Source of the DNA: Mesorhabditis belari
Taxonomy: Eukaryota; Nematoda; Chromadorea; Rhabditida; Rhabditidae
Direction: 5' to 3'
Assembly (NCBI GenBank): GCA_958450365.1
Contig: CAUEEP010000222.1
Span: forward strand, 434,001-498,000
DNA length: 64,000 nt
Positions 1 through 64,000 of this stretch are shown here, in pieces (position 1 is the stretch's first letter; every line of letters starts with the position of its first letter). Below the pieces are notes generated by a model. It searched no databases and was not told the origin of the DNA. It saw only the letters and a program-made list of their open reading frames with translations. The position numbers and the translations under genes are program-made.

Positions 1-330
1 GGACAAGTCAAACTTTTGCCTCCAGATGATTGTTTGAGAATGGAGCCCTACAGCGCTACTGCTTTCACGAAATGTTGGAAATGCTTTTTTAAATGGCTAT
101 TTGGATGTCAAAAGGCATGCTAGCACGGTTTGAAGCCTGATTTGATGAATTCTGGACAAGTCAAACTTTTGGCTCCGATTAAGTGTTTGAGAATGGAGCT
201 CTACAGCGCTACTGCTTTCACAAAATGTTGGAAATAGTTTTTAAAACTGATATCTGGATGTCAAAAGGCATGCTAGCACAGTTTGAAGCCTGATTTCATG
301 AATTCTAGGCGAGTCAAAAAAATCTCCCAG
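1..330. repeat. tandem repeat, ~152-bp unit, about two copies
   Basis: The first 300 bases hold two copies of a unit that begins GGACAAGTCAAACTTTTG (positions 1 and about 153). Each copy has one box-like TGGATGTCA (about 101 and 254). The spacing of about 152 matches the longer class of box spacing seen elsewhere. No gene is seen in 1-1823. Confidence 0.75.
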
Positions 331-879
331 TTCTGGCAGTTGGAAAGAAAGAATGCTAAGTCCGAAATGACTAGAACGGCTCTGTTTTTAAAAATTCTGC
401 TTAGAATCTGTCCTGTGCCTTCCAGAATAACCAAAAATAGCCCTAAGATCCCTATTTGACTTTTAGAATTTACGGTAGCTGCTTGATTAGGAAGCTCAAC
501 TAGAAATGCTTAGATTTTCAAAAATTTGATCGGATTACGTGCTGTGCGCTCCAGAATGGCGAAAAAATAACAAAAGCCGACTATTATCCGGGTAAAATTT
601 GCAAATTAGCCCGGTACGCAGATTTTGAGATTGGGTAAGATTTAAAGACGGATTTTCCCAAATTCCTCTTGACTAGCGCTTCCAATGACTTCCAGAACAC
701 CCAAAAATCGGTACCAAAAATGCGGGCAGAGGTTGAGTGCGAGATTTGTCCCCAGCTCTTTTCCCCCGGTGTCACAAAGTTCTTGAAATCGAATCGCGCG
801 ATTAATTTGCCTCGACAAGGAGAAAAAGGGGCAGAAAAAGGGAAAGGGGCGTGCCTAGGCCGAATACTTGCTTCTTTTC

Positions 880-960
880 GTCTTCTCTTCATCTTCTCTT
901 CATCTTCTCTTCATCTTCTTTCCTTCTTTCCTTCTTTCCTTCTTCTTCTGGCCTTTTCAT
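880..960. repeat. pyrimidine-rich microsatellite (TCATCTTCTCT-type)
   Basis: Imperfect repeats of TTCTCTTCATC, followed by CCTTCTTT runs, on the + strand. Reading frames across it are low-complexity Ser/Leu/Phe and are not taken as coding. Confidence 0.8.
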
Positions 961-1423
961 CCCCCCCTTCTGGCCGTATAGGGCTGTATAGGGCCATATA
1001 GGGCCATCGAGCAATCACCCAGATCTCTCCACTCCTCACAGCACCGTAATCTTTTAATAATCATTTTTTTGGCGATCCTGGAATCTACGGACGATCGTAC
1101 GCCATCTACAGACGATCAACGATTTGCTTCCATCAATTTCTCGGCTTTCTTTCTCGGCTTAGGCTTACTCGGCTTACTGTACTGATCTGACGAGAATGCC
1201 GGTGTCGCAGTGCGAGGTTTTTTGCCTTTTTAGCTAATTGTTTTGTTCATTCTGGATGTCACACGATAGTTTGAGCACATTTTAGAAAGCTCTGACGCTA
1301 AAATAATGATGCTGATCTTAAATGCTAATTCTAAAATGCTTTGTATGCAAATTTTTGCAACAACTGAAAAGTTTGCAAATTTGTATACATCTTTTGCGGA
1401 TATGTTTTGCATAATAAGCTTCT

Positions 1424-1812
1424 GTGATATCCATATCCATCAGCTTTGCCATTTAAATGCTAATTTATCCATCAATAACAGAAATACGGTAGCCAAATCG
1501 TTTCCCCGAGGGAAATGCCCGGTTTACGGTTTTCGAGATCATTTTTAGATGTTTTATTGCCAGTTCTGGAAGTCACTTTAGAATTTGAGACGGTTTTCAG
1601 CCGGCGATAAACGATTTAGAATGTAGATTTTATTTGGTGCCCTTTCTACCGTACCACCGAGTGTACAGTTTTTTAAAAACCCAACTTTTTAATTAAATTT
1701 CCATTTCAATCACTCCCCTGCCATCCAATTTAGCTTTTTCAGCTGAAAAAGCAAAAAACTAGCTTGAAAAATTCCCGCCAAATCACCCAGTCCTAAAACT
1801 TTTTTCTCAAAA
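1424..1812. repeat. upstream region of mab-3 exon 1, copy 1 of a ~390-bp duplication
   Basis: Nearly identical in sequence and orientation to 5092-5488. This copy ends just before the acceptor and start codon of the DM-domain gene, so it probably includes part of its promoter or 5' region. It contains one CTGGAAGTCAC box (about 1566). The two copies differ by a few substitutions and small indels. Confidence 0.85.
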
Positions 1813-1819
1813 TCGACTT

Positions 1820-1827
1820 TTCAGTAG
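1820..1827 (+). promoter_or_regulatory. candidate spliced-leader acceptor of mab-3
   Basis: TTTTCAG ends at 1824, three bases before the start codon at 1828. This is the usual spacing of nematode trans-splice acceptors. An ordinary 5'-UTR intron acceptor is the alternative. Confidence 0.55.
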
Positions 1828-4800
1828 ATGGACGATGAGGTGACTGGCCGTCAAAGCGAGCCGTGTTCACCTCAACCATCAACGAGTCAGGAAACGAGGA
1901 ACAGTGATCACGAGGAGCAGCCGGAGCAACCCACGAGTGAGTTTTGAGTGGCGACGATTTCGAAACGCATCTTTTGATGGCTAGAGGACTGGCGGTTTTT
2001 ACAAAAATCTATGCCTAGATAAGCAAAATTATCCAAATAATTATGGATGATATGGATGTCAGGGAAGGCATTGGGGGCATTGAGACGGAAAATTTCTTTA
2101 AAACACTATTTTTATAAAAATTTATGTACAAAATACAGGACTGGCGGTTTTTACGAAAACCTATGGCTAGATAAGCAAAATTATCAAGAGAATTGTATGA
2201 TCTGGATGTCAGGAAAGCCAAAAATTTGAATAGATTAGCGAAATACCTAAGTGTTCAGATGGCCGAGTGGCTAGCACAATAGGCTGCAAGTCTGAGGGTC
2301 CTGGTTCGAGTCCGCTAAGGGAAAAGGCATTGTTTTTTCAATTTCAATCATTCCCAAACCAAGTGTGACATCCATAATGACCATTTTCAATGAAATTCTT
2401 TTGTTTTACGAATTGTAGAGTAGTTTTTTGAGTTTAAAGCCAAATGTCAAACACCGTTCAACCAAATTCGTTTTTTTTCGGATATTCATCCATCCTGGAA
2501 GTCACAGTATAAGAATTTCACAAAAAATATCGAAAATCTACATGAAAACATGTGGTCAAGTGGATAGTGAAGTTGGCTACAAATCTCAGGGTCCTGGTTC
2601 GAGTCCTCTTGAAGTTTTTGAAAATTTTCAGCCATTTTCAGCTCATTTTCAGCCTCATTTTCAGCCAATTGTCAAGAGGCGTCAACTTCATCGAACCCTT
2701 CTTCATCAATGGCTCCATTGATGCCATTCTCCATGCCAGTTCAACAAAATGTCAAGTTCATGAAGAGAAAAACGCAGAGAGGTGAGATTGGGAGATTTTG
2801 AAGAAAGTTTTGCTCAAGCTGGATGTCACAGCGTAGATTGAAGCGAAAATTTTTAGATGTAAAGCGCTATTGCTCTTTGTGTCGACAACATGGACTACTC
2901 GAGGAAACGAGAGGACACTCGTGCTCGAAAAGGGATTGCGAATGCTTAAAGGTGCGGGAAAGTTTCTTGTGCGCTCCAGATTCGTCGAATTCGCAAGAAA
3001 ATTTCAAATTTAACCCTTAGAACTCGAGTTTTAGCCCCAGCTACGTATCTTGACTCAAAAGACTCAAAAATCTCAGCCAATTTTCAAGAGATTCCCTCAA
3101 ATTTTGATTTTTTTCACCGATCTGGAGGGCAGCTGAGCTTTTGAGGGATTTTATTTGTACTGTTACCGTTTCCCAATTTTAGTGTAAATTGATGCGTCGA
3201 CGTCGCGAGATTATGACTAGCCAAATTCGGCTCCGACGTGAACAGGAACGAGTGATGGAGAGGAGATTCGACGGAGAGATCCCCGCATCATCGCAGCGCA
3301 TAAATCACGCATCCACGTCGCCTAAACAGTCTCCGCATTGCTCAACGCACATCACAATTGAGGTTTGCGACGATTTTGAAAGATTTTCAACGGTTTTCTA
3401 AAGAGAGCTTGGTTTTTAAACAGCTAATTACTGAGTTCTGGATATCACAGAAGAGTTTGACTCGGTTTTTAGTTAAGTTTTGGGACTTTGAGATGAGTCG
3501 ATTAGCTTTGCGACGATTTTGAATGATTTTCAACGGTTTTTTAGTGAGCATTTGGTCTTTCAACAGCTAAATACTCTGTTCTGGATATCACAGAAGAGTT
3601 TGGGTCGGTTTTTAGTTGAGTTTTGGGGCTTTGAGATGAGTCGACCAGTTTTGGGAAGATTTTGAACGATTTTCTAAAGGTGAACTTGGTTTTCTGATTT
3701 CTAAACAGCTAATTACTGCCTTCTGGATAGCACAGAAGAGTTTGAATCCAATTTCCATTTGTTTTATGAGATTATAAAATAAGTCAGTTTGGTGGTTTAG
3801 TTACCCAAGTCAAGACCGACTGGTGTAACTAAGCCGGCCTTCTCGAAATCCCCCGCCCACCCACCCCGTGTTTGGTGTCGTTTAAAGCAAAATCGACAAT
3901 GGGGAATCCAAAAATGAGATTACTTTTTCATAAAATCGAATTTGGCTCATCGTCATTTGGCTTCGACCGTAGCTCAGTCGACTCATCGATTTATCGTTAA
4001 ATCTGCCGGTTTCTTATGCCGGATTACAGTGTGCCAGCCAGGATCAAAATCTCATCCCGAGTTTTAAGCCGCTTTCTTTCTCATTTCTCCTAAAATCACC
4101 CAGCTCCTATTTTTCAACCTCGTCGAATCGTATCGCTCGTGTTTTTCAGCGGAAACTAGGTCTCTTTCTCGATCTCTTGACTACAATCTTCATTTTTGGA
4201 GGGCATACAGTAGATTTGCGAGATTGAACGGGCAAAAAAAAAAAGCTTTTTTTCATCCAGGCACAAGCCAGCAAACACTTCGGAGTGAATTTTCTCAATT
4301 ATACGGTAAATCCGCGGATTCTCTCTGATGAATTCGGCCATCCTGGAGGGCACAGCACAAGATAATAAAGGATTTTCGTCTATTAGTGCGATTTTTGTCT
4401 AGTCGACTCCTTTTGCGGGGTTTGAGAGAGCACACAGCACACCAAAGTACAGCCAGTAGAGATATTGGGTCAGTGAGGTCATTGGGCATCCATGGGGACT
4501 TGGGGTACTTATGGGGACTTGGGACACCCATAGGTCAACTTGGGACACCCATGGGGACTTGGGACATCCATAGGTCAAGTTGGGGCACCCATAGGTCAAC
4601 TTGGGGCACCCATTGGTCAACTTGGGACACCCATGGGGACTTGGGACATCCATAGGTCAAGTTGGGGCACCCATTGGTCAACTTGGGTCACCCATAGATC
4701 AACTTGGGGCCCATGAGACCTAAAGTCTCAAGTTTCGATTTAAATCCAAGTGTATGTAGGCGCCTTAGCACTCTAGCATGATCAACCCTTCTCCCAATTC

Positions 4801-7800
4801 TCCCAATGATACCCGATGGTCGTTGGTAATGAGTTCGAGTCATTTTGGAAGCATCCATTTTGGGCTCTCTGCAAGCTCTCCACAGCTCTCTTTCATCTTT
4901 CAAAGATTTGTCCCCAGAAGGAAACTTGGCAAAACTATACTTGACACGTACTTTGAGGGCACAAGAAGAGCTACAGCAATCACAAGCGGAACAACAAGCC
5001 CAAACGAGGCCTTCTACAAGCCTTCTACACGATCGCCACCGTCGTCACCAATCCGCCCTTTCAACTGGTTCTATGCTATTGTTTTCTTTATCTGTGACAT
5101 CCATATCCATCAGCTTTGATATTTAAATGCTAATTTATCAATCAATAACAGAAATACGGTAGCCAAGTCGTTTCCCCGAGGGAAATGCCCGGTTTACGGT
5201 TTTCGAGATCATTTTTAGATGTTTTATTGCCAGTTCTGGAAGTCACTTTAGAATTTGAGACGGTTTTCAGCCGGCGATAAACGATTTAGAATGTAGATTT
5301 TATTTGGTGCCCTTTCTACCGTACCACCGAGTGTACAGTTTTTTTTTAAAAAACGCAGCTTTTTAATTAAATTTCCATTTCAATCACTCGCCTGCCATCC
5401 AATTTAGCTTTTTCAGCTGAAAAATCAAAAAACTAGCTTGAAAAATTCCCGCGAAATCACCCAGTCCTAAAACTTTTTTCTCAAATCGCCCTAACCCTAA
5501 GCCTAACCCTTTTCAATTCACCAACCAGACAGAAATTCAACAACCAATTAGTTCTTAAAGTTATTTAAGCTGTAATTGAAAGATCCCAGCCATATCTACC
5601 ATTTAGCGCAGTGGATAAATTCCCCAAGTTTATGGTCCTGGTTCGAGTCCGGTGTCGGTCGAAAAATTTTATATTGTTTTTTTTTGAAGATTTTAAATGA
5701 GATTTACCTCGTGTGACTTCCAGGAGGCCATCACAGCCGTTTACGCGTGTCAGAAGTGCAAAAATCATGGCATAATGCAGTCGAAGAAGGTTTGCATCTT
5801 TTTGTTTTTTTTTAAATGCTTTTTTTCCTTAATAAACTAGCTCAACAAGCCCAATGACCTCCAGAATGGCTGAAAAAGCGAAAATTGGAAAGTAAAACCT
5901 GAGAAATTAGGCTGAGAATCGACCATTCTCAAAAGCTAGATCGAATTTTCGCTTTTAGGGGACTTTCCTGTTAAACGCCAGCAAGATTTACCTCTCTATT
6001 TCCAGGATCACATCAAAGATTGCCAATTTTCGACATGCGAGTGCCCGCTGTGTTCGCTGATCGATTCACGAAGGAAAGTCGAAATCTGCATGAAAGAGTG
6101 CCAAGCCAGTGAACCGTCAACATCGGGTTAGAAACGAAATTTTTGCACATCAGCAACTAGCGTGCCATCCAGCTTACTCGAAAATTCGTTTTCTGAATTT
6201 ATACCTCTTGAGATTTCGCTTGATTTTCTGCCATTCTCAAACAAGCAAAAATGGCCATTTACAAATTTACATTTAAAACCCGATTTAAATGTCTCAAAGT
6301 TTCCTGTGACCTCCAGCTTGCTAGAAGAAAATCTCATTTTGTTCGATTTTCTTTGTATTTTTGCTTATTTTTAGCCATTCTCGAATTAGGCAATCGAATC
6401 AGGCAATTTCCTTGACTCCTGTACAGAAATGAACTTATTCTAGCTGTTATTCGTAAATCCTGGAACGCACAGAACATTTTAAAATAGCTACGAAGTAAAA
6501 ATATCTAAAGTACCAGATGGCGTAGTGGTTAGCGAGTTTTTCTATCAAACTGAGGATCCTGGTTCGATTCCCCGAGCGACCGAAAATTTTTCTTTTTCCG
6601 AAAATTATCTTTGTAAGTGTTATGTGCGTTCCAGGATGCCCAAATAACGTTACAAATCATTGTGAAAACCAATGTACTCCAAGAAACAGCCTCGAACTCT
6701 GTTCACCGTCCAAACTACCGTTTTCCAGAAGGAATAACCCTTGATAACAGTGATTCGTAAATCCTGGAACGCACAGAACATTTTGAAATATCTAGAGAGT
6801 AAAAAAATTCATAGTACCAGATGGCGTAGTGGTTAGCTCAGTTTACAAATCTGAGGGCCCTGGTTCGATCCCGGTCACTGCCAGTCTTTTTCTATTTTTG
6901 CATTTTAAGCTTCTAGAATCCTTTTGTGACATCCAGTTCAACTGATCAAACTTTAAAAATCAGCCAATTACTCAAATATTCCCATTTCTCGAGCCCAAAC
7001 TAAATTCTGGCATCATCACGAGTACTTAGACCCGGAAAAACAGTGTTTTTCTCAGACTTTTGACTCCCGAACACAAATAAGTTCCAAAAATCATCGAAAA
7101 TAATCGCCGTTCTTTGATTTTTGATCAAACTTTCACAATTTTCCATCATCAAAACACTGGCTGAGTCAAAGAATTAGGACTGCGCAAAATTGTGCCCTCT
7201 TTTAACACAATTACCCCAATTTCACACCGCCATACTGTATTCTGGAAGTCACAGCATTGATTTGCACACGAAAAACATGACTAAGTCGATTTTTTTTCGC
7301 TTCCTCCCAATCTAAAAAGCAAAAATGGCCATTTACAAATTTACATTTAAAACCCGATTTAAATGTCTCAAAGTGTGACCTCCAGCTTGCTAGAAGAAAA
7401 TCTCATTTTGTTCGATTTTCTTTGTATTTTTACTTATTTTTAGCCAATCTTTAATTCGATTCGAGTTAAAGCGATTTCCTCGACTCCTGTACAGAAATGA
7501 ACTTGTCCTAGCTGTTATTTGGAAGTTCTGGAACGCACAGAACATTTTGAAATATATAGGGAGTAAAAAAATATACCAGCCTAGTGGTTAGCGAATTTTT
7601 CTACCAATCTGAGGGTCCTGGTTCGATTCCGCGAGCGGTCGAAATTTTTTTCTTTTTTTGAAAATTATCTTTGTAAGTGTTATCTGCGTTCCAGGATGCC
7701 CAAATAACGTTACAAATCATTGTGAAAACCATTGTACTCCAAGAAACAGCCTCGAACTCTGTTCACCATCAAAACTACCGTTTTCCAGAAGGAATAACCC

Positions 7801-10800
7801 TAAATAACAGTGATTCGTAAATCCTGGAAGTCACAGAACATTTTGAAATATATAGGGAATCAAAATACTCATAGTACCGGATGGCCTAGTGGTTAGCGAG
7901 TTTTTCTACCAATCCGAGGGTCCTGGTTCGATTCCCCGAGCGGTCGAAAATTTTTTTCGTTTTTCGAAAATGATTTTTTTAAACGAGAGGTTCGTTCACG
8001 TGTGTTGCCCGATGTCTAAAATATGTTTTCCTTTCGCTCAAAACACACTCTATTTTGTCGAAAATTGCATCGCTAATTAGGGTTGTTGAAAGCAAAAGAC
8101 TGAACGTCAATTCCGTCAATTAAATGATCTTTGGGGAGCAGAAAACGGCGAGAAAATGTACTGTAAACTTTTTTTGTTTTGAATTATGTATTTTGAAACT
8201 TTTCGAAGAAAGACTGACGCGGATAATTGAAATGGATCATTTCTTAAAAACAAGCTCTAGTTCATTAAAAATGGGTTACCAGTGTTATGTGCGTTCCAGG
8301 ATGCGCAAATAACATTAAAAACCATTGTGAAAATGATTGTACTCCAAGAAACAGCCTCAAACTCTGTTCACCGTCAAAGCTACCGTTGTTCAGAAAAAAA
8401 AGCCCTTGATAACAGTGATTCGTAAATCCTGGAAGTCACAGAACATCTAGGGAGTAAAAAAGCCATAGTACCGGATGGCCTAGTGGTTAGCGAATTTTTC
8501 TACCAATCTGAGGGTCCTGGTTCGATTCCCCGAGCGGTCGAAAATTTTTTCTTTTTTCGAAAATGATCTTTGTAAGTGTTATGTGCGTTCCAGGATGCCC
8601 AAATAAAATAATAAATCATTTGGAAAACCAGTGTACTCCAAGAAACGGCCTCAAACTCTGTTCACCGTCAAAATTATCGTTGTTCAGAAAGAAAAGCCCT
8701 AGATAACAAGTGATTCGTAAATCCTGGAAGTCATAGAACATTTTGAACTATATAGGGAGTCAAAATATTCATAGTACCAGATGGCCTAGTGGTTAGCGAA
8801 TTTTTCTACCAATCTGAGGGTCCTGGTTCGAATCCCGAAGGCGTCAAAATTTTTGCTAAAAGTTTAATTTGACTTCTTTTTGCAGCCCCATTCAAGTTGT
8901 GCCCTTGTACTAACTCCATTTTTCCATTTTTGATTCCATTTTCACCCAAAATGTAGCCAATTCCGAATAGTACAGTACTTGTATCAAAGCCATGACTCAC
9001 ATCTTTACTCCCAGCCTAGAAAGCCGAGAAAGAGCTTTTCTGATGGGAAATTACGACAGATCGCTGTCTGTGAGAACTGGCTAGCTCCAATTACAATTAG
9101 CGCCGGCTAATTTTGCGTTGAAAATTCTCCGAAAGTGCACGAAATTGCGAATGGGATTTTCGAACTAGCAAATAGGGATTTTCAAAAAACGAAAAGCATT
9201 TTAGGCCAAGCTGGAACGCAGGACAGGAGCTGGATTTGAAAAAATCGCTCTATTTTCAATTTTGAGCTTCCTTAAAATTCTGATTCAGGACTGGTGAAAA
9301 ATCTTGAACCCAAATGCAAATTTGCAAAAACTGAAAGCATTTTAGGCCAAGCTGGAACGCAGGACACGAGTTGCATTTGAAAAAATCGCTCTATTTTCAA
9401 TTTTGAGCTTCCTTAAAATTCTGATTCAGGACTGGTGAAAAATCTTGAACCCAAATGCAAATTTGCAAAAACGAAAAGCATTTTAGGCCAAGCTGGAACG
9501 CAGGAAAGGAGTTGCATTTGAAAAAATGGCGCTATTTTGATTTTTGAGCTTTCTTAAAATCCAGATTCAGGACTGGCGAAAAATCTTGGACCCAAATGCA
9601 AATGTGCAAAAACGAAAAGCATTTTAGCCCAAGCTGGAATGCAGGACAGGAGTTGCATTTGAAAAATGGCGTTATTTTGATTTTTGTGCTTCCTTAAAAT
9701 CCGGATTTAGGACTGGCGAAAAATCTTGCACCTAAATGCAATCTAAGGCTAGATAATCGGTTTTTCATTGATGCTGGAACGCACAGAATTTTTCCCAAAT
9801 ATTAGCAGGTCAATATCTCGAAATTTTCCAATGGTCTAGTGGATAGCGCGCTTGTCTCACAGTCGAAAGGCCGCTGGTTCGAGACCCACCGAGTCCTCAA
9901 TTGTTGCCAAATTCTGTTTATGCAAATTTTGCGTTCCTTTTTAGCTTCTAGGCGTTTTGTCATCTAATCTCTAGATCCCGATCCCGCTAAACACTATAAA
10001 CCAAGGTTAGCCTTGGAACTTTCGAGGACTGGGCAATTTTGCGGTTTATTTAGTACCTTTTCGCTATTTTTTTGCTATTTTTCGCTAAGCTGGAATGCAG
10101 GAAAGGGGTTTCGAAAGTTATTTTAGCTAAATTGGACAAATAAAAAATTGATGACGTCATCTGGTGCTGGAATTTTCGTTGAAAATTTAAATTTGCATTT
10201 ATCACTTGGAAATTTGCATAAATAGTTTATGTGACTTCCAGGATGGCCAAAAAAAGCGTTTATTTTCTGATTGAAGCCTTTTAAAGCCTAGAAAACCTCG
10301 AGGTCAGCGCCGAGCCTCTCACCAAGTTTCTTTTGTTGATACCACTGAAATTTTCAAACCCATTCACTCTTGTGCTTTCCAGATCCACCAGAAATCGTCT
10401 CTAAACTCTCTAAAAATTTTTCCTCGCCATTTTCTCGCAAAGTGCACGTACTTGACTATGTCCTGTCCCAGAGAGAAAGTTCCAGAGAAAGCTAAGCCGA
10501 TAATTAGGCATCGGCCTGTCTTTCCCCGCTTTCCCCGTTTCCCTTTCTGTAAGAATTTGCCCATTTCGAACTTGTGGAACTTCACGATTTCTATTTTAGT
10601 ACAGAAAAGTTACCGGAAACTTTTGGAGAGTCTTAAAACCGATTTAAACCCATTTCTAGCTATTTAAAGCAACCTTTTCCTGAGTTCTGGAACGCACAGT
10701 CAACAATTAAAACTTAGCTAACTTCAGAGCTTCAATTTTTAGAGCTTCAATTTTTAGGCACTGCGTAATTGAACCGACCAAATTCAAAAATTTAGAATTG

Positions 10801-51685: not shown

Positions 51686-51739
51686 CGTTCTTCTCTCGCT
51701 CAATTGAATAGTTTGTACCTAGAAGTTGTGCTTTAAACT

Positions 51740-54732: not shown

Positions 54733-54805
54733 TTCTCGGTGGTGTAATGGTTAGCGAGCCAGGCTACCAGTCGAAAGGTCGAGGGTTCGACTCCCGGAAG
54801 GGCAA
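54733..54805 (+). pseudogene. tRNA-like element
   Basis: GGTGGTGTAATGGTTAGCGA and GGGTTCGACTCCCGG, with an intact A box resembling tRNA-Asp/Glu. Forward box CTGGAAGTCACAG about 53 bases upstream. Acceptor ends do not pair. Confidence 0.55.
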
Positions 54806-55570: not shown

Positions 55571-56130
55571 TTTAGCACGAGAAATTCGAGCAGTCCCAGA
55601 AATCGGTGTCAAACTTGGCTAGACATCGAATTTTTGCACAGAAAAAGTGAAAGTATGATAAAAAAAGCTGTGTTTTCTTTGGTTTTATAGTCTTTTGGAT
55701 AAAAAAAGAGCCTGAAAATTGAACCCAATCAGGTGAAAACTTTAGAAAACAGATGGAAATTTTTTCTCGAAAATTGAAAAATTTCTGATTTTTGCACATT
55801 AGAGAAAAAAGCTAATTTATTGAAATCTAAGAAATCTTTGCACATTTTTGAACTTTTGGAAGCCTAAGAATGAATTTAGAACGAGAAAAGGTGAAAATGA
55901 AATCGTTTGAAAACAAAAAAACGTGATTCTAGACATTAACTAGACATTCATTTTGAGTTTTGATTTTTTAAGATCAATCACCCAACCAATAGCTTTCTTT
56001 GCTCGCGTGCCTTCCAGATAAAACAAAAATATGAAAATTATTTAGATTGCTTCAAAGAAACTCGAATTATAACGTCGAATTCTGATCTGGGTAGAACAGA
56101 CGTACAGGACAGAATGAAAAATTTGATCAT
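55570..56130. other. AT-rich spacer
   Basis: No gene or tandem array seen. One box-like GTGCCTTCCAG near 56010. Confidence 0.5.
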
Positions 56131-57230
56131 CTTCTGTGACATCCAACTAGAATATAGCTAAAATCCTAGACAGCTTATCCCTTCTGGAACAAGAGTTATG
56201 CCGGCAAGGAATTTCGCACCTAAGCCTGGTTGGAATTTTCGGCCAGCACCCCTTTGTCATATGTCGTTTAGAGCAAATCAACTATGGGGAATCCGAAAAT
56301 TCAATTATTTTCGAAGGCTGGCTTTGAAAATCCCGGTGAAAGGTGAAAAATTTGCATATATCGCTTGGAGCTTATCTAATCGAAAAATGGATGTGATTTT
56401 TGGATTCCTGATAGTCGATTTGCTTTAAACGACATACGGCACGGGGGTGCTGGGCGGGAATTTCAGCCAGGCAATTTCAAGGTCCGGTTCAATTACGCAA
56501 CTTTGTCTAAAAACAGTAATTCCGAAATTCCGAAATGTAGAAATTTGATCAATTCAAGCTTTGCTGTGACCTCCAACTTAGATTTACCCAAAATATTAGA
56601 AAGCCTACTCCTTCTAGAACAAGAGTTACACCGCCAAGCAGTTTTGCTTAAAAAGTGCCTGACTGAAATTTCGAAATGCTCAAATTTGATTAATCCAATC
56701 TTTAGTGTGACATACAACTAGAATATAGCCAAAATATTGGAAAGCCTACTCTTTCTAGAACAAGAATTACGTTGGTAAGGAGTTCCGCCCCAAAAGTGTC
56801 TGATGAAAAATTGTAGCTACAATACCCGCTACAATCTGAAATTTTGTGGTGACATCCAATTTAGATTTAGCCAAAATATCGTAAAGCCTACTCCTTCTAG
56901 AATAAGAGTTACGCCGGTAGGGAGCTTTGCTCGAAAAGTGCTTGAATGAAACTTTTAGCTGATGTTCCCCAATCAATGGCTTTGCTCGTGTGCCTTCCAG
57001 ATAAGCCAAAAATATGAAAATCATCTAGATTTTTCTAGGGAAACTCGAGTTATAGCTTCGAGTTCTGACCTAGGTGCACAGGCATTTGCGTAACTGAACT
57101 TGGCAGGTTCTCAATTAATAGCTTTGCTAGTGTGCCTTCCAGATGAGCCAAAAATGTGAAAAATATCTAGATTGTTCTAGGGAAACTTGAGTTATAGCGT
57201 TCTAAGCATTCTCTGAGCCGAAAGTCAGGT
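56130..57230. repeat. foldback family copy and GTGTGCCTTCCAG repeats
   Basis: 56130-56520 is an inverted-orientation copy of the 48.3/50.5-kb family. 56520-56960 repeats TAGAATATAGCCAAAATATT, CTACTCCTTCTAGAACAAGA and GTGACATCCAACT. 56970-57230 carries two copies of CTTGCTCGTGTGCCTTCCAG type units. A parallel order occurs at 59840-60720. Confidence 0.75.
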
Positions 57231-57239
57231 ACTGTAGTT

Positions 57240-57545
57240 GGGAATCTAACTTTTAAGCAATTCATGGCAAGTCCTGGATATCACAGTAAACATTAGCATT
57301 GTTAAAAGTTCGGGTTACTGTAGGGAATTAGTTGGGGTAGTGTAGTCAGCTACTGTAGTCAGGTACTGTAGTTGGCGACTGTAGAACTGTAGAACCGGCG
57401 GCTTTCTTTAATTCGTAGCTTACTGTGGCATCCAACTAAGCAAACGCCAAAGTTTCAGCGAATTTCATCAACCCAACAATGAGCTAGGGCCTCGATCGCG
57501 TTCATCGTAATTTAAGGCGAACGATGGAGGCTAGATGGATAATTT
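57240..57545. repeat. inverted repeat with 59330-59660
   Basis: Shares GCGTTCATCGTAATTTAA, GTCAGGTACTGTAGTTGG-type CTGTAGT runs and the box CTGGATATCACAG with the reverse complement of 59330-59660. It joins directly to the left arm of the larger inverted duplication. Confidence 0.8.
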
Positions 57546-57592
57546 TTCGAAATCCTTGCATCCTGGAGGTCACTATAGAAATCCTATTACAG

Positions 57593-58289
57593 GGCGTCAC
57601 TCTGATGTCGATCGGAATCGTGCTGACGTTGCTGGGCTGCGTGTCGTGGGTGTCGCGCTTCATGCTACACGATTGCCTGGCAAGGTGGGTTTTTTGGTGG
57701 CAATCATTGAGGTGCTATCCAGCTTGGAGATTTCTTAAATCAAAGCCGTAAAATCATTGCGGATTCTCGAAAAATCGACCCAGTCCTGAAACCTTTGAGT
57801 CAAATTTCAACTTTTGAGCCAATTTTGGTGTTTAAAGTTTTGAAATCAAAAAAATAGCTAACGTGCGCTCCAGTTTCGTCAAATATTAACACAAAAGATT
57901 TATCGCTTTATTAATTTGCAAAATTTCAGGGTCTACTCTCATATGAAGGCGGCTCCAGTGAAAGAGGCGCAACGGCGGCGAGCAAAACGGCTGTGAGTGG
58001 CTGATTTGAGTCAAGAATCGAATTCTGTAAACAGTTTAGCCCTTTTTTGGCTCAAGTACAGCACCTGGGCAGATGTAAAATGGGGATTTAAGGAAAAATT
58101 TGACGAAGATATGAGTTCAACGCTTGTAATCGCTCATCCTTATCCGAAACTCGATAATTTTTGCGTTTCTCTCTGATCTGGAACGCACAACACAATTCCT
58201 GAGAATTAGATTTTGATTTACTGACATTTGCGTTACTTGGCTAGATTAGTGTCACCGTCGCGCCGCCGCCGGGTACCCAAGTACCTAAG
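57593..58289 (+). CDS. unrecognised membrane-protein gene, 3' exons (copy A)
   Basis: Three exons in consistent phase: 57593-57684, 57930-57992, 58250-58289. The first encodes a likely membrane span (MSIGIVLTLLGCVSWVS) followed by RFMLHDCLA. The second is basic (VKEAQRRRAKRL). The third is Pro-rich (VTVAPPPGTQVPK) and ends at donor GTGAGC. I do not recognise the family. No 5' exon was found: the sequence upstream of the first acceptor belongs to another inverted repeat, so this copy may be 5'-truncated. Downstream, two decayed copies of the third exon region follow (about 58400 and 58540). Exons 1 and 2 are identical to copy B at the right end of the window, though the introns differ, suggesting selection or gene conversion. 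The end of the coding sequence is unknown. Confidence 0.55.
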
Positions 58290-58687
58290 GTGAGCAAATG
58301 CTGATTCTATGATTATGAAACACTAGCGTGACATCCAGATTGACCATTTTGGTTTTTAAACAACCGGATCATCCTACAAAGTATGTCAGAAAACACCCAG
58401 CTACCGTCCGGCTCCTTACCCAAGTGCCTAAATTGCTTAAATGATGATTCTATGATTTCGAAAATCTAGTGTGACATCCAGCTTAGCCATTTTGGCCTTT
58501 AAACAACTGGATTGTCGTACAAGGTAGCCCAAAGAATACCCAGCTACCGTCTGGCTTAATTACCCAAGTGCCTAAGTCGCTCATTCCTATTCAAATCTCG
58601 ATAATTTTTGCGTTTCTCTCTGATCTGGAAGGCACAGCACAATTCCTGGCAATTAGATTTTTGATTTATCTAAATCTACTGGAGCTA

Positions 58688-58745
58688 GGTCCGGTCGGGG
58701 AGTCGAACCCGTGGGCGAAAGAGGCCGCTCGCCCGGTAATATACA
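58688..58745 (-). pseudogene. tRNA-like 3' half
   Basis: On the - strand: ACCGGGCGAGCGG... then GGGTTCGACTCCCCGACC. The same half occurs at about 52117-52169 and 62766-62829, where it is joined to a GGCGCAGTGG A-box half. Here that half is absent because the inverted duplication ends within it. Confidence 0.55.
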
Positions 58746-58760
58746 GTATCAGTTCTTTCC

Positions 58761-58842
58761 TTGCATGGCCGAGTGGCTACATCGATAGTCTCTAAAGCGA
58801 TAGCGAGGCTAAACCTCGAGGGTTCGATCCCCCCGGCTGTCA
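58761..58842 (+). pseudogene. tRNA-like element, class II-like
   Basis: GCATGGCCGAGTGGCTACATC, a variable-arm hairpin CGAGG/CCTCG, and GGGTTCGATCCCCC with four of five T-stem pairs. Resembles Ser/Leu tRNAs with a long variable arm, but the acceptor ends do not pair and the anticodon stem is poor. An inverted box GTGACCTCCAG follows at about 58891-58901. Confidence 0.5.
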
Positions 58843-59130
58843 TCAATTTCAAATTGGTCCAAATTCTTTTCTAAAACTTTTAAAATGTGTAGTGACCTCC
58901 AGATCTTACAATTTTCTTTCTAAAAAAGACAATTGTTGAGCCAGATCTGCGGAAAGAGGCAGAGAAAGGAAAAAGGGGTTTAAACGGTGAAAACGATGAA
59001 AAAGATGAAAAATTAGTGAATTTATGGGATTCCAGGGGTTTATAGAAGTGTAATAAAGAAGATAAATGGAGATTTTTCGAGGATTTGACTGTTTTATTGA
59101 CAGATTTCACAAGTTTTTAATGAAATTTCC

Positions 59131-61492
59131 TCATTTTTGCTCTTTTTCGTTTGTTTCGATCTCTTCTTGTTCGATTCTTTTTTGAAAATTGATCATTTGA
59201 TGATTGGCGATGCGACGCATTACATCGAAACCGGTGACTGCCTGAAAAATTTTAGTTTTTGATCAATTACCAAGGGTACTGTAGCCGAATAATGTAACCT
59301 AAAGATAATGCCTGCTTTTGAGTAATCAGATTTCTATAGTGACCTCCAGGATGTAAGGATTTCGAAAAATTATCTATCTAGCCTCCATCGTTCGCTTTAA
59401 ATTACGATGAACGCGTTCGACGCCCTAGCTGATTGTTGGGTTGATGAAATTTGTCAAAACTTTGGCGTTTGCTTAGTTGGATGTCACAGTAGGCTACGAA
59501 TTAAAGAAAGCCGCCGGTTCTACAGTTCTACAGTCGCCAACTACAGTACCCGACTACAGTACCCGACTACAGTACCCCAACTAATTCCCTACAGTAACCC
59601 GAACTTCTAACAATGCTAATGTTTACTGTGACATCCAGAACTTGCCATGAATTGCTTAAAAGTTAGATTCCCAACCTCGCCGATGAGGAAAATGATGTGA
59701 ATCCCGTAGACAGCTTTCTCGAGGGGAAGTGGTCGGATATCGGCGTTGAAGAGGAGAAAAAGCGAAAGGGGTAGCTGGATGAGGAGAGAGGTGATCCAGA
59801 AACCGGAAAGCGCTGGGATCTGGAATGAGGTATGGTTATTGTAGCTAAAAATTTCGACCAGGCAAAAGTGCCTGCTTCAACTTTGACCCAAAACCCCCCG
59901 TGTTTAGTGTCGTTTAAAGGTTCTTGGCTATGGGGAACCCGAAAATTCAATTATTTTAAAAGGTTGGCTTTGAAAATCCCGGTGAAAGGTAAAAAAATTG
60001 CATATGTCGCTTGAAGTTTATCTAATCGAAAAATGGATGTGATTTTTGGATTCCTGATGGCCGATTTGCTTTAAACGGCATACGGCACAGGGGTGTTGGG
60101 CGGGAATTTCAGCCAGGCACTTTCCAGGTCCGGTTCAATTACGCAACTTTGTGCAAACACAGTAATTCCGAAATTGCGAGATGCAAAAATTTAGTCAATC
60201 TAAACTTTGCTGTGACATCCAACTAGAATATAACCAAAATCCTAGACAGCTTATCCCTTCTAGAACAAGAGTTATGCCGGCAGGGAGTTTTGCTCGAAAA
60301 GTGCTTGAAAGAAAATTGCATCTACAATACCCGCTATAATCTGAAATTTTCTAGTGACATCCAATTTAGATTTAGCCAAAATATTAGAACGCCTACTCCT
60401 TCTAGAACAAGAGTTACGCCAGCAGGGAGTTTTGCTCGAAAAGTGCTTGAATGAAACTTTTAGCTGGTGTCACTCAATCAATGGCTTTTCTCGTGTGCCT
60501 TCCAGATAAGCCAAAAATTTGAAAATTATCTAGATTTTCCTAGGGAAACTCGAGTTATAGCTTCGAGTTCTGACCTAGGTGCACAAGCACTTGCGTAATT
60601 GAACCGGGCAGGTTCCCAACGAATGGCTTTGCTGGTGTGCCTTCCAGATGAGCGAAAAATGTGAAAAATGATCTAGATTCTTCCAAAGAAACTGGAGTTA
60701 TAGCGTTATATTCGTTCTCCGCGGTGTACTTTGTGCTTTAATGTAAACGCTAGCTTTGTGAAGCTACAAACCTTTTCCCCCAGATTCCCGTAGTAGCCGA
60801 GCAAAAGTCGAACGCATTCAACGATACAGAAAACGATAAAAATCGAGATGAGAAGCACTTGATACGTGACAGACAAGAGGGAGTACTGTAAAGGGGTACC
60901 GTAGATTTATTAGCAGGCTAATAGTACGGTAGATAGTAGATTTTAGCTTTAAATTACCTTTACGACGAAACAAGAGACTCCAAAAATGAGCAAAACCGGC
61001 ATAAAGTAAACGTTGAAATGGAGGAAAGCCTGCAGACCGAGACTCGTTAAACGCTCTGGAATCGATTTTTAACTTCATAGATCTTTCCTATGACATCCAG
61101 AATTCACTATAGAATTCTTGGAATTTTGAAAAAAACATCAAATTCGCTTAAAATCTTTGCGATTAGAGATCACTGGGAAATAGGCGATTGTATGAAAAAT
61201 TGAGCACTAAGAAAACGCTATCTGCCAATCTGGAAGTCACCCAACACAATACGATATTTACTGAATAAATTTAAACAAATTTTTTCGTGGCCAAGTGGTT
61301 AGTGCGCTGGTTTCTCGATCCAAGGTACCCGGGTTCGAGTCCGCGAGCTGCCAAATGGTTTTTTTTTATTGTTATTTCTTTATTTCTTTTCTTTATTTCC
61401 CTTTTCTCTGTCCATCGTTTACCTCGTTGCTCGATTTTTGCGCGCTTGCTGACAAAACCGCGAATAATTTGCGCTTTTTCATCGTCGTCCAT
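59131..61492 (-). CDS. tmem-17: TMEM-17, ciliary transition-zone membrane protein
   Basis: Exons on the - strand: 61492-61423, 61055-60958, 60885-60772, 59819-59676, 59241-59131, joining in phase to 178 residues plus TGA. Four hydrophobic spans are visible: LLIFGVSCFVV (after GLQAFLHFNVYF), LLISIFIVFCIV, ITSLLIQLPLSLFLLF and AVYGIHIIFLIG. Hallmarks of the TMEM17 family are ECVRLLLGYYGNLGEK before span 3, LSGFWITSLLIQLPL, and PLEKAVYGIHIIF. TMEM17 belongs to the MKS module of the ciliary transition zone, the gate at the cilium base; in nematodes it acts in sensory neurons. The C-terminus is charged (QKRIEQEEIETNEK). Acceptor TTTTCAG lies nine bases before the ATG. It sits in the spacer of a large inverted duplication and intron 3 carries foldback repeats. 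Confidence 0.88.
59330..59660. repeat. inverted partner of 57240-57545, in tmem-17 intron 4
   Basis: Reads CTATAGTGACCTCCAGGATG ... CTAGCCTCCATCGTTCG ... GTTACTGTGACATCCAGAAC. The first 70 bases also match, in the same orientation, the right end of the window (63940-64000), so it continues the arm of the larger duplication. Confidence 0.8.
59840..60720. repeat. foldback family copy plus CTTCCAG repeats, tmem-17 intron 3
   Basis: 59860-60240 is a copy of the GTCGTTTAAAG family (compare 48.5 and 56.2 kb). 60240-60720 repeats the unit order of 56560-57230, including TAGCTTCGAGTTCTGACC. Confidence 0.8.
61283..61352 (+). pseudogene. tRNA-like element in tmem-17 intron 1
   Basis: CGTGGCCAAGTGGTTAGTGC and GGGTTCGAGTCCGC. 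TTCGTGG at the 5' end and CTGCCAA at the 3' end can form six pairs with wobbles. Box CTGGAAGTCACCC about 56 bases upstream; a T run follows. Confidence 0.5.
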
Positions 61493-61508
61493 TCAAATTT
61501 TCTGAAAA
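61493..61508 (-). promoter_or_regulatory. candidate spliced-leader acceptor of tmem-17
   Basis: On the - strand GATTTTCAG ends nine bases before the start codon at 61492. Confidence 0.5.
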
Positions 61509-62070
61509 TCGAGGAAATTTGAGAAAATTAGAGTAAAGGAAAAGGAAAAAGGGCTAAAAATAGAGTAAAGGTGAGATTTTTCCGAAAGCGATTCAGGATT
61601 TTAGTTTGTAGTGGTTGCTATGGAGACTCTAAGGCTCGAGCATCGACCATGCGGTCGGATGGCCCTTTTCTCAAAGGTAAACCTTTTAGCACATGTTGTG
61701 ACGTCCAGAATTGTCTGTAGAGTCATTAGAAATCTGCTAGAATTGTCTAGCCGCGAGGAATTGACTCGAAGTCCGAGAGGATTTTGTGCTTGATCAGAAT
61801 TTTGTATTTTCGAGGTTTTAAACATTTCTTTCCATAGCATGACATCCAGATTTATCAAAAAATTGTGTAAAATTGAGATTTCAATATTTTGATGGCGTCA
61901 AATTCGAGGTGACAGTGGCCTGTGAGCCGCTTCGACTCAACGGGAGTTGAGAAGTGGCGGTGGCCGAGCGGGAGACCGTGCCGGACATCCGAGAGCTAAA
62001 AAATAGATAAATCAGGCAATAGTAGTTTTTTGTAGTTTAGCCTTTTTTACTAAAATTTCAGCCTAACGCT
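61509..62070. other. upstream flank of tmem-17
   Basis: Holds one inverted box GTGACGTCCAG (about 61709) and one GCATGACATCCAG (about 61850), and an isolated A-box fragment GGTGGCCGAGCGGGAGACC at 61956-61976 without a B box. No exon seen. Confidence 0.5.
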
Positions 62071-62830
62071 ACTGGTTGCTTGCCAAAAAAGTGGCTTGGG
62101 TTCGACCCCAGGCCTTGAAATTTCGGTATATTGTGATCTGGAAGTCACACAAGATATTTCATGAAAAAGATTTGCGAAATCGACAAAGTACAAAATGGCG
62201 CAGTGGGATTTCAGGTTACTTGCAAAAAAGTGGCTTGGGTTCGCCGGCCAGGCCTGGAATTTCGGCATATTGTGATCTGGAAGTCACACAAGATATTTCA
62301 TGAAAAAGATTTGCGAAATCGACAAAGTACAAAATGGCGCAGTGGGATTTCAGGTTGCTGGCAAAAAAAGTGGCTTGGGTTCGAGCCCAGGCCTTGAAAT
62401 TTCGGTATATTGTGATCTGGAAGTCACACAAGATATTCCATGAAAAAGATTTGCGAAATCGACAAAGTACAGGATGGCGCAGTGGGATTTCAGGTTACTT
62501 GCAAAAAAAGTGGCTTGGGTTCGCCGCCAGGCCTTGGAATTTCGGCATATTGTGATCTGGAAGTCACACAAGATATTTCATGAAAAAGATTTGCGAAATC
62601 GACAAAGTACAAAATGGCGCAGTGGGATTTCAGGTTGCTGGCAAAAAAAGTGGCTTGGGTTCGAGCCCAGGCCTTGAAATTTCGGTATATTGTGATCTGG
62701 AAGTCACACAAGATATTCCATGAAAAAGATTTGCGAAATCGACAAAGTACAGGATGGCGCAGTGGGATTTCGGAGGATTACCGGGCGAGCGGTCTCTTTC
62801 GCCCACGGGTTCGACTCCCCGACCGGACCT
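62070..62830. repeat. tandem tRNA-like array, 140-bp unit, about five copies
   Basis: Units: GATCTGGAAGTCACACAAGA, TTGCGAAATCGACAAAGTAC, TGGCGCAGTGGGATTTCAGG, then a B-box region GGTTCGAGCCCAGGCC. Boxes start at 62138, 62277, 62417, 62557 and 62697 (139, 140, 140, 140). In two units the B box is altered to GGTTCGCCG. The last unit switches to the GGGTTCGACTCCCCGACC half and enters the right inverted arm. Two near-identical unit types alternate, so the array probably grew by 280-bp steps. Confidence 0.9.
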
Positions 62831-64000
62831 AGCTCCAGTAGATTTAGATAAATCGAAAATCTAATTGCCAGGAATTGTGCTGTGCCTTCCAGATCGGAGA
62901 GAAACGCAAAAATTATCGAGATTTGAAATAAGAATGAGCGACTTAGGCACTTGGGTAGTTAAGCCGGACAATAGCTGGGTATTCGTTGATCTACTTGGTA
63001 CGACAATCCGGTTGTTTAAAGGGCAAAATGGCTAAGCTGGATGTCACGCTAGTGTTTCATAATCATAGAATCATCATTTAAGCAATTTAGGCACTTGGGT
63101 AAGGAGCCGGACGGTAGCTGGGTGTTTTCTGACATACTTTGTAGGATGATCCGGTTGTTTAAAAACCAAAATGGTCAATCTGGATGTCACGCTAGTGTTT
63201 CATAATCATAGAATCAGCATTTGCTCACCTTAGGCACTTGGGTACCGGGCGGCGGCGCGGCGGTGACACTAATCTACCCAAGTAACGCAAATGTCAGTAA
63301 ATCAAAATCTAATTCTCAGGAATTGTGTTGTGCGTTCCAGATCAGAGAGAAACGCAAAAATTATCGAGTTTCGGATAAGGATGAGCGATTACAAGCGTTG
63401 AACTCATATCTTCGTCAAATTTTTCCTCAAATCCCCATTTTGCATCTGCCCAGGTGCTGTACTTGAGCCAAAAAAGGGCTAAACTGTTTACAGAATTCGA
63501 TTCTTGACTCAAATCAGCCACTCACAGCCGTTTTGCTCGCCGCCGTTGCGCCTCTTTCACTGGAGCCGCCTTCATATGAGAGTAGACCCTGAAATTTTGC
63601 AAATTAATAAAGCGATAAATCTTTTGTGTTAATATTTGACGAAACTGGAGCGCACGTTAGTTATTTTTTTGATTTCAAATCTTTAAACCCCAAAATTGAC
63701 TCAAAAGTTGAAATTTGATCCAAAAGTTTCAGGACTGAGTCGTTTTTTCGAGCCCCGCAATGGTTTTACGGGTTTTGATTGAAGAAATTTCCAAATTGGA
63801 TAGCACCTCAATGGTTGACACCAAAAAACCCACCTTGCCAGGCAATCGTGTAGCATGAAGCGCGACACCCACGACACGCAGCCCAGCAACGTCAGCACGA
63901 TTCCGATCGACATCAGAGTGACGCCCTGTAATAGGATTTCTATAGTGACCTCCAGGATGTAAGGATTTCAAGAAATTATCCATCTAGCCTCCATCGTTTG
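62765..64000. repeat. right arm of the >1.2-kb inverted duplication
   Basis: Reverse complement of 57545-58745, continuing to the window edge, so the full arm may be longer. Contains tandem copies of the CACTTGGGTA region and copy B of the membrane-protein exons. Confidence 0.9.
63229..63925 (-). CDS. unrecognised membrane-protein gene, exons of copy B
   Basis: Exons on the - strand: 63925-63834, 63588-63526, 63268-63229, the same phases as copy A. The first two are identical to copy A at the nucleotide level. The third differs at three bases (one Val to Ala change, two silent). Introns differ more (for example GGTGGCAATCATT versus GGTGTCAACCATT after the first donor). 5' exons, if any, lie beyond the window, so this copy may be the intact gene. 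Function unknown: one membrane span, then a basic stretch and a Pro-rich end. Confidence 0.55.

What the first reader, a model, noticed from the sequence alone, without database searches (positions are those of the whole stretch)
1..64000. A short degenerate box, CTGGANNNCACAG, dispersed more than 100 times in both orientations
Seen directly: CTGGA, three variable bases, CAC and usually AG (reverse CTGTGNNNTCCAG). Common forms are CTGGAAGTCACAG, CTGGAACGCACAG, CTGGATGTCACAC, CTGGAAGGCACAG and CTGGAGGTCAC. It occurs in intergenic DNA and most introns, inside repeat families that otherwise share no sequence. The middle three bases vary while the ends hold, the pattern of a protein-binding site and not of a copied repeat. 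Known parallels: holocentromere satellites of Meloidogyne nematodes share a conserved short box across unrelated repeats, as alpha satellite carries the CENP-B box; C. elegans piRNA genes carry a dispersed upstream motif; meiotic pairing centres use dispersed zinc-finger motifs. Which of these applies, if any, is inference.
Basis: partly seen in the sequence, partly recalled or inferred. Interest (0 to 1): 0.9.

Follow-up and report, generated by a model that had tools for sequence, protein, structure and literature searches.

The report
DNA box repeated once per nucleosome
In a nematode that discards part of its DNA in body cells, many otherwise unrelated repeat sequences share one short conserved DNA box, spaced as if each box marked the middle of one tightly packed nucleosome, which points to a DNA code for specialised chromosome packaging.

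Summary
The box is real: CTGGANNNCAC occurs 136 times in the window (0.94 expected), CTGGANNNCACAG 3,175 times in the 207.6-Mb genome (40 in the reversed control). It is the conserved part of about 141-bp satellite monomers that fall into 160 BLASTN clusters once the box is masked. Boxes form a lattice, centres mostly 141, 152 or 163 bp apart, on either strand. Flanking A/T steps alternate every ~10.2 bp in one phase relative to the box: 125 of 125 clusters of this domain agree, and 34 of 35 found only outside it. That phase puts the box at or beside the predicted nucleosome dyad. Between paralogous copies the core diverges 1.5%, its surroundings 13-20%. The organism is almost certainly Mesorhabditis belari, holocentric and with programmed DNA elimination. 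Boxes concentrate in zones and are absent from the RSK kinase gene of the window. Best reading: a dyad-bound protein organises compact, phased nucleosome arrays, most likely centromere-type or elimination-related germline chromatin. Closest parallel: Meloidogyne holocentromere repeats with a 19-bp box. No ChIP, MNase or germline/soma data were available: the architecture is secure, nucleosomes and function are inferred.

The parts
101..20069 (.). First stretch of the box lattice (satellite monomers of about 141-163 bp, both orientations)
   Evidence: Matrix scan; tandem arrays
37296..63955 (.). Second stretch of the box lattice; the lattice runs on beyond the window on both sides
   Evidence: neighbouring 9-kb loci L034 and L035 hold 43 and 45 boxes
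20070..37295 (.). Box-free island
   Evidence: 0 of 209 boxes
21179..37004 (-). RSK-type S6 kinase gene with its introns; protein P0241 of Mesorhabditis belari
   Evidence: 11 tblastn segments 88-100% identical (rows of 85% or less were dropped), covering residues 20 to 714 with gaps; start codon worked out from the ORF at 36864-37040; protein
3364..3674 (+). Tandem array, 143-bp unit, boxes CTGGATATCACAG at 3438 and 3581 and CTGGATAGCACAG at 3723 just beyond
9185..9741 (+). Tandem array, 141-bp unit, boxes every 141 bp
11319..11926 (+). Five boxes spaced 152, 140, 152 and 151 bp: linker length changes by about one helical turn inside one array
12808..13332 (-). Tandem array, 141-bp unit, boxes on the minus strand
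14402..14932 (-). Tandem array, 141-bp unit
47118..47591 (-). Tandem array, 140-bp unit, boxes between 47089 and 47658
53505..53958 (+). Tandem array, 153-bp unit
62074..62771 (+). Tandem array, 140-bp unit; box, and in some units a tRNA-like A box and B box in the linker
6460..6634 (.). Example of a convergent box pair (6460 +, 6634 -) with a tRNA-like A box at 6518 and B box at 6561 between them
2303..2313 (+). B box GGTTCGAGTCC at +101 from a box, with a TGGCCGAGTGG A box at 2260

Best explanation
The box is a short DNA-binding site at or beside the dyad (midpoint) of a sequence-programmed nucleosome. Each satellite monomer of about 141 bp is one nucleosome unit: a conserved box (core CTGGA...CAC, plus A/T at -2 and mostly A at +14) flanked by A/T-rich steps every ~10.2 bp that fix the rotational setting of the DNA, then a GC-richer, less phased linker. 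Monomers differ in nearly everything else, but box, phasing and spacing (141 + 11n bp, either strand) persist. Inferred mechanism: a protein that recognises the box, or histone octamers that prefer it, builds compact arrays in satellite zones of the holocentric M. belari chromosomes. A 141-bp spacing is shorter than the 147 bp of a canonical core, so the particle is likely a short-wrapped one such as a CENP-A nucleosome. The most likely use is germline centromere-type chromatin, or the marking of the satellite blocks that this genus discards from somatic cells. Shown here: box constraint, spacing, phasing, genome-wide spread, exclusion from one gene. Inferred: nucleosome occupancy, the bound protein, and the function.
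For: Box far above chance in window and genome. Same-orientation pairs 137-157 bp apart: 5,040 genome-wide against 28 in the reversed control; at 169-189 bp only 75 against 15. Convergent pairs 482 and divergent pairs 425 in their search ranges, reversed controls 0. Opposite-strand neighbours in the window: 63, centred at 129-133 (3), 138-143 (26), 149-156 (21), 161-166 (10), 172-176 (3), none between. The same on the listed 50 of 425 divergent pairs: 24 at 138-143, 24 at 150-155, one each at 134 and 145; the listed 50 of 482 convergent pairs are less sharp: 16 at 139-143, 19 at 148-154, 13 at 160-166, two at 156 and 158. WW-SS profile: leave-one-out correlation positive in 125 of 125 clusters of the C159 domain, and 34 of 35 clusters found only outside it; a 5-bp shift gives 8 of 125 and 3 of 35. 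Phase coherence 0.72 left and 0.62 right over 78 clusters; random anchors mean 0.09-0.10, maximum 0.26 in 200 trials for each of two sources. WW peak pairs are centred near +4.4 with half-distances of about 14.7, 25.6, 35.8 and 46 bp, read by me; these fit the inward-facing minor grooves of a nucleosome (recalled). Core divergence 1.5% against 13-20% around it, 62 of 62 boxes. A divergent, possibly CENP-A, H3 with one extra residue in loop 1 is encoded in the genome. Species: P0241 lies on a 3,759,350-bp contig, the exact length of C569, the other haplotype of the window. M. belari is holocentric with 2n=20 (PMC10456839, passages); satellites are a substantial part of the DNA eliminated in Mesorhabditis (PMC13370393, passages).
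Against: No ChIP, MNase or germline/soma coverage was available. The dyad could be at about -0.5, +4.5 or +9: mirror symmetry alone prefers +9 (r 0.45) over +4.5 (0.30), and the joint spacing test does not separate offsets 2, 5 and 10. Part of the periodicity could be phased A/T tracts, which bend DNA without histones: runs of 4 or more occur 1,729 times against 779 in mononucleotide shuffles. The zones are not spread evenly along the large contigs, unlike a typical holocentromere. Right-arm coherence in 24 clusters of five other loci is weaker (0.37 at 10.2 bp, 0.55 at 9.8). The allele test rests on few SNPs: 4 of 1,208 core sites, 119 of 11,434 flank sites, 34 of 4,661 linker sites. The CENP-A candidate's best matches are H3: all 60 shown of 179 PDB sequences, and in the protein search no hit bears a centromeric-H3 name apart from one domain-type name, P0217 (120 of 175 listed).
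Confidence: 0.5

Rival explanations
1. Elimination tag: the box arrays mark germline-restricted satellite blocks. A box-binding factor blocks CENP-A loading or recruits the breakage machinery in early somatic cells, so the blocks are lost.
For: Satellites are a substantial part of eliminated DNA in Mesorhabditis (PMC13370393, passages). In Ascaris, DNA about to be eliminated is not stained for CENP-A (PMC9894435, passages). Boxes are zoned: the 112 places of two variants whose lists are complete fall on 31 of 714 contigs, 22 of them on C708 and 14 on C569.
Against: An RSK kinase gene sits inside a dense part of the domain, and few genes are said to be eliminated. No germline/soma coverage was available here. 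The elimination motifs described in Oscheius and Caenorhabditis lie at telomere-addition sites, not throughout arrays.
Confidence: 0.25
2. Meiotic pairing-centre-like zones bound by a zinc-finger protein, about one zone per chromosome.
For: Zoned distribution; haplotype groups that I paired by eye number roughly ten, near the haploid number 10 (2n=20).
Against: Nothing known to me (recalled) links pairing centres to a nucleosome-length lattice. The C. elegans motif tested is not enriched in the window. Contigs were not assigned to chromosomes.
Confidence: 0.08
3. tRNA-derived repeat: the monomers descend from a SINE-like Pol III unit and the box is an upstream promoter element.
For: In the 82-kb domain B boxes 43 (2.6 expected) and strict A boxes 16 (0.0 expected), mostly at fixed offsets such as +58 and +101 from a box; T-runs follow, by eye.
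Against: Only 8.1% of 158 clusters (weighted) have an A box at +58 and 3.6% a B box at +101, with up to 2 mismatches; five other box-bearing loci hold 0 to 3 exact B boxes each, and 40 kb of non-domain loci hold 3. No tRNA called in 43 segments.
Confidence: 0.08
4. Relic of one old satellite: the box is what remains by chance or by biased gene conversion, with the 10-bp pattern produced by mutation on positioned nucleosomes rather than by selection.
For: Monomers are tandem copies, and nucleosome-dependent mutation can create periodic A/T content (recalled).
Against: Core divergence is about one tenth of the flank divergence in paralogous pairs. Even so, this rival still needs strongly positioned nucleosomes.
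Confidence: 0.09

Closest known systems
Meloidogyne CenH3-associated tandem repeats with a 19-bp box (Despot-Slade et al. 2021; paper not held, known to me through passages of PMC9673304)
   Same: Holocentric nematode; several divergent repeat families share one short conserved box; short arrays.
   Different: Here the core is 8 fixed positions around three free ones, the families form about 160 clusters, monomers are ~141 bp with 11-bp spacing steps, the box lies at or beside the predicted dyad, and the distribution is zoned. CenH3 association is untested; the Meloidogyne box letters were not seen.
CENP-B box of alpha satellite and CENP-B-box-like motif of Meloidogyne satellites (PMC9673304, PMC3694981, passages)
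   Same: Short protein-site-like motif conserved in divergent monomers.
   Different: The human core is not enriched here; monomers of about 170 bp in PMC3694981; in human dimer arrays the CENP-B box lies between two CENP-A particles (PMC8997354, passage), not at the dyad.
10-bp WW periodicity of satellites (cited in PMC8997354, passage)
   Same: Rotational phasing of A/T steps in satellites.
   Different: Here the phase is locked to one conserved box across sequence-unrelated monomers and both orientations.
Sequences for elimination (SFE) in Oscheius tipulae and Caenorhabditis (PMC13370393, passages)
   Same: Short motif in nematodes with programmed DNA elimination.
   Different: SFEs are associated with individual telomere-addition sites; this box is repeated thousands of times inside satellites.
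Periodic An/Tn clusters of C. elegans (recalled)
   Same: 10-bp phased A/T tracts.
   Different: No conserved box and no ~141-bp lattice known to me for them (recalled).

Membership tests
Meloidogyne CenH3 repeats with 19-bp box | Divergent tandem-repeat families sharing one conserved short box | tested here: met
   160 clusters share the box; core constraint
Meloidogyne CenH3 repeats with 19-bp box | Same 19-bp box sequence | not testable with these tools
   Paper not held; letters unknown to me
Meloidogyne CenH3 repeats with 19-bp box | Association with CenH3 by ChIP | not testable with these tools
   No ChIP data; only a CENP-A-like gene was found
Meloidogyne CenH3 repeats with 19-bp box | Distribution along whole holocentric chromosomes | tested here: inconclusive
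   Zoned on contigs, with scattered boxes outside the zones; contigs not assigned to chromosomes
CENP-B box | Core TTCGNNNNANNCGGG (recalled essential bases) | tested here: not met
   Window: 5 with up to 1 mismatch, 9.1 expected
C. elegans piRNA upstream motif | CTGTTTCA (recalled) | tested here: not met
   Window: 2 found, 3.8 expected
C. elegans pairing-centre motif | TTGGTCAGTGC (recalled) | tested here: not met
   Window: 1 with up to 1 mismatch, 0.7 expected
Nucleosome-phasing satellite | Monomer of nucleosome length with ~10-bp WW periodicity | tested here: met
Nucleosome-phasing satellite | Nucleosome actually positioned on each monomer in vivo | not testable with these tools
   Needs MNase or ChIP data
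Eliminated germline satellite of Mesorhabditis | Present in germline, absent from soma | not testable with these tools
   No read coverage held; the Mesorhabditis paper is not held
tRNA gene or SINE | Cloverleaf or A and B boxes in each copy | tested here: not met
   0 of 43 segments called as tRNA by ARAGORN; A box at +58 in 8.1% of clusters

The most novel reading that the evidence does not exclude
M. belari uses a DNA-encoded chromatin unit: a dedicated protein binds CTGGANNNCAC at the dyad of a short-wrapped, CENP-A-type particle, and this unit, copied across unrelated satellites at 141 + 11n bp, specifies where kinetochore chromatin forms in the germline and hence which chromosome pieces are kept or discarded when the soma eliminates DNA. 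That would be a genetically specified centromere code in a holocentric animal.
Probability: 0.2. Interest if true: 0.95.

Novelty: new variant of a known kind. Interest (0 to 1): 0.8.

Why it matters
Centromere identity in holocentric animals is usually thought to be largely independent of DNA sequence, and how nematodes choose DNA to eliminate is unknown. A box locked to the predicted dyad and to helical spacing, kept while the rest of each satellite differs, gives a sequence handle for both questions in a culturable worm. It also offers a natural set of about 160 sequence-unrelated clusters that obey the same phasing rule, useful for testing nucleosome positioning rules.

Tried and rejected
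Species: family searches for COX1 and 18S did not complete. The H2B search gave nematodes among many animals but no species; the CENP-A search gave no useful name; the RSK search settled it. No Rfam family reached the gathering score in the window, and no tRNA family reached E 1 in bases 1-20,000 (its one listed match, a bacterial sRNA at E 0.22, is taken as chance). No tRNA gene by ARAGORN in the window. No Pfam domain in five other long ORFs of the window. The first idea that the box is spread evenly as a holocentromere was dropped after the zoning results. The idea that every monomer is tRNA-derived was dropped. The first pairwise divergence profile was set aside as biased by selecting monomers on box score; one search replaces it. 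No paper describing this box or M. belari satellite sequences turned up in the listings of ten literature searches; of ten papers I saw passages only (PMC9071541, PMC9673304, PMC3694981, PMC12321929, PMC8997354, PMC10456839, PMC13370393, PMC11555361, PMC9894435, PMC12643312). The library lacks most subscription papers.
Full report
What was claimed and what is there. It is there: 50 exact 13-mers against 0.06 expected and 136 of the 11-mer CTGGANNNCAC against 0.94, 65 on the plus and 71 on the minus strand. In the whole genome of the window (G000, 207.6 Mb, 714 contigs) the 13-mer occurs 3,175 times, the same pattern read backwards 40 times. The window, with 50, is far denser than the genome average.

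Organism. Exon pieces of an RSK-type kinase in the window matched an unnamed protein of Mesorhabditis belari (P0241) from a contig of 3,759,350 bp. That is exactly the length of contig C569 in this assembly, and C569 carries the other haplotype of the window: the seven colinear blocks that I used are 97.5-99.3% identical, with 264 SNPs in 36,886 aligned bases. The species is therefore almost certainly M. belari. The library says that it is diploid and holocentric with 2n = 20 (PMC10456839, passages), that its somatic karyotype changes by diminution (PMC11555361, passages), and that satellites are a substantial part of the DNA eliminated in Mesorhabditis while few genes are (PMC13370393, passages). 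The original Mesorhabditis paper is not held.

The lattice. Tandem Repeats Finder reports many arrays with units of 140-143 and 151-153 bp but different sequence. A 27-column matrix finds 209 boxes in the window; at its threshold about 8 false ones are expected. Taking box centres 5 bp inside the motif, 148 of the 208 neighbour distances fall between 126 and 178 bp, and 128 of these 148 within 2 bp of 130, 141, 152, 163 or 174 (uniform expectation 47%); 59 of the 208 are above 200 bp. Neighbours on opposite strands, which head-to-tail copying alone cannot make, obey the same rule: 63 distances, 26 at 138-143, 21 at 149-156, 10 at 161-166, 3 at 172-176, 3 at 129-133, none between. Genome-wide, same-orientation pairs 137-157 bp apart number 5,040 against 28 in the reversed control; 169-189 bp apart only 75 against 15, and 16 of those 75 come from one 19-bp array on C469. 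Convergent pairs number 482 and divergent pairs 425, with no reversed-control match. Of the 50 divergent pairs listed, 24 are at 138-143 and 24 at 150-155; of the 50 convergent pairs listed, 16 are at 139-143, 19 at 148-154, 13 at 160-166 and 2 between. Some listed pairs are haplotype or segmental copies of each other, so the counts are not independent events.

One box, many sequences. With the box masked, 399 monomers from the C159 domain and six other stretches form 160 BLASTN clusters. Among 270 alignments of at least 200 bp at 68-92% identity inside the domain, 62 of 181 exact boxes could be compared with a paralogous copy. The eight core positions differ at 1.5%, the three middle bases at 19%, the 12 bases upstream at 13%, flanks at 16%, linker at 17%, and the A at +14 at 3.3%; the core was below the flank for all 62. 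Between the two haplotypes, core sites carry 4 SNPs in 1,208, flanks 119 in 11,434 and linkers 34 in 4,661. The box is therefore constrained, not merely inherited.

Phasing. Around the box, A/T-A/T steps peak every ~10.2 bp. Over 78 clusters the phase coherence is 0.72 on the left and 0.62 on the right; random anchors give means of 0.09-0.10 and at most 0.26 in 200 trials for each of two sources. Each domain cluster correlates with the mean of the others in 125 of 125 cases; shifted by 5 bp, in 8 of 125. Clusters that have no member in this domain, from other contigs or from C159:380-385 kb, agree in 34 of 35 cases; shifted by 5 bp, in 3. In one search the left and right peaks pair about a centre near +4.4, at half-distances of roughly 14.7, 25.6, 35.8 and 46 bp (my reading). 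These fit the inward-facing minor grooves of a nucleosome (recalled). Mirror symmetry alone leaves centres near -0.5, +4.5 and +9 open and slightly prefers +9, and the spacing data do not decide; all fall on or right beside the 13-bp box. Coherence is 0.49-0.78 from -60 to -5 and 0.41-0.69 from +20 to +50, low inside the box's right half, and falls to 0.13 at -65 and 0.21 at +60, with a rise to 0.45 at +65. GC content is 0.36 and 0.32 in the two arms and 0.47 in the linker at +60 to +83. Phased A/T tracts can also bend DNA without histones, so nucleosomes are an inference.

Where it lies. The domain continues on both sides of the window (43 and 45 boxes in 9 kb each), is thinner at C159:380-385 kb (11 in 5 kb), and is nearly absent from samples at C159:1-5 kb (1), 200-205 kb (2) and 600-605 kb (0), and from three samples of other large contigs (2, 0, 0 in 5 kb each). 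Three variants on C569 give 44 places, all between 1.586 and 2.742 Mb of 3.759 Mb. The 112 places of two variants with complete lists fall on 31 contigs, 22 of them on C708 and 14 on C569. Boxes and box pairs also occur outside the dense zones, for example on C159 at 11.7, 140, 180 and 240 kb and 625-668 kb. Inside the window the RSK gene, about 21,179-37,004 on the minus strand, with its long introns, is an island with 0 of 209 boxes.

A second element in some linkers. In the 82-kb domain exact B boxes (RGTTCRANNCC) occur 43 times (2.6 expected; 3 in 40 kb of non-domain loci) and strict A boxes 16 times (0.0 expected; 1 in the same 40 kb), mostly at fixed offsets such as +58 and +101 from a box, in several cases between convergent boxes about 174 bp apart, followed by T-runs. 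None of the 43 is called a tRNA. Only 8.1% of 158 clusters have the A box at +58, so this is a subset, not the general rule.

Mechanism. I commit to a chromatin unit: one box at the dyad, phased arms, a short linker, repeated at 141 + 11n bp. A 141-bp repeat leaves no room for 147-bp cores side by side, so a shorter-wrapped particle, such as the ~121 bp of CENP-A (recalled), is the natural guess. The genome encodes a divergent H3 with one extra residue in loop 1 next to a W-Q, which I read as CENP-A (the W-Q mark is recalled). Against that, its best PDB matches shown are all H3 (60 of 179 shown) and the protein search gives no centromeric-H3 name apart from one domain-type name (120 of 175 listed). 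Whether the arrays serve germline kinetochores, elimination, heterochromatin or pairing cannot be settled from sequence. Exclusion from a gene would fit the inverse relation of centromeric chromatin and germline transcription reported in C. elegans (recalled; seen only as a reference title); expression of the RSK gene was not tested.

Comparison. In anatomy it is closest to the Meloidogyne CenH3 repeats that share a 19-bp box (passages of PMC9673304); it differs in zoning, in the number of families, in the dyad position and in the helical spacing rule. The human CENP-B core, the C. elegans piRNA motif and pairing-centre motif are not enriched in the window. WW periodicity in satellites is known (PMC8997354, passage); its locking to one box across unrelated monomers did not appear in the listings and passages that I saw from ten literature searches.

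Check of this report. On a second reading against the calls I corrected the range of divergence around the core, the wording on clusters outside the domain, the count from C469, the B-box control, and added the H3-type matches of the CENP-A candidate and the scattered boxes outside the zones.

Noticed in passing
window 1-20000 and 42000-63000 (e.g. 2260-2313, 6518-6571, 7882-7935, 8782-8835, 45901-45955): tRNA-like Pol III units (A box, B box, T-run) at fixed offset in a subset of linkers between boxes; 43 exact B boxes in the 82-kb domain against 2.6 expected.
   Followed up: partly
window 21179-37004 (-): RSK-type S6 kinase gene with long introns forms a box-free island inside the satellite domain.
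   Followed up: yes
L043 (G000 C714:1118700-1120300, minus strand): CENP-A-like histone H3 gene in at least three exons, longer loop 1 (AGSEKYWQSS), ends RRLQNF.
   Followed up: partly
L018 (G000 C545:3023982-3027308); L019 on C550 scores the same: H3 variant; L018 has an extended N-terminal tail (GKGGKQAVTGKQARSHPQ) and changes such as KEISQDYKTDLRY. L019 was not read.
   Followed up: no
L044 (G000 C569:587900-589500, minus strand): H3-like fragment followed by many tandem repeats reading RTRTSYPYV/RTRTFNSYV in frame; looks like a decayed copy.
   Followed up: no
window 34409-34426 and 34877-34894: Short telomere-like TTAGGC repeats inside the RSK gene region (5 matches with up to 1 mismatch in the window, 0.22 expected).
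   Followed up: no
window 17513-17648; 31451-31631; 4517-4708: Simple arrays: GAAGGA x22.7, AACTATAAAGG x16.5 in the kinase gene, and a 21-bp ACTTGGGACACCCATAGGTCA array with an 82-bp higher-order period.
   Followed up: no
G000 C469:5494-5960: A 19-bp tandem array whose unit itself reads CTGGAGAGCAC, so the box core also occurs in a repeat without the ~141-bp lattice (16 of the 75 rows).
   Followed up: no
G000 C159 and C569: The assembly holds both haplotypes of this region: colinear at an offset of about 1.23 Mb, with about 0.7% SNPs in 36,886 aligned bases.
   Followed up: yes
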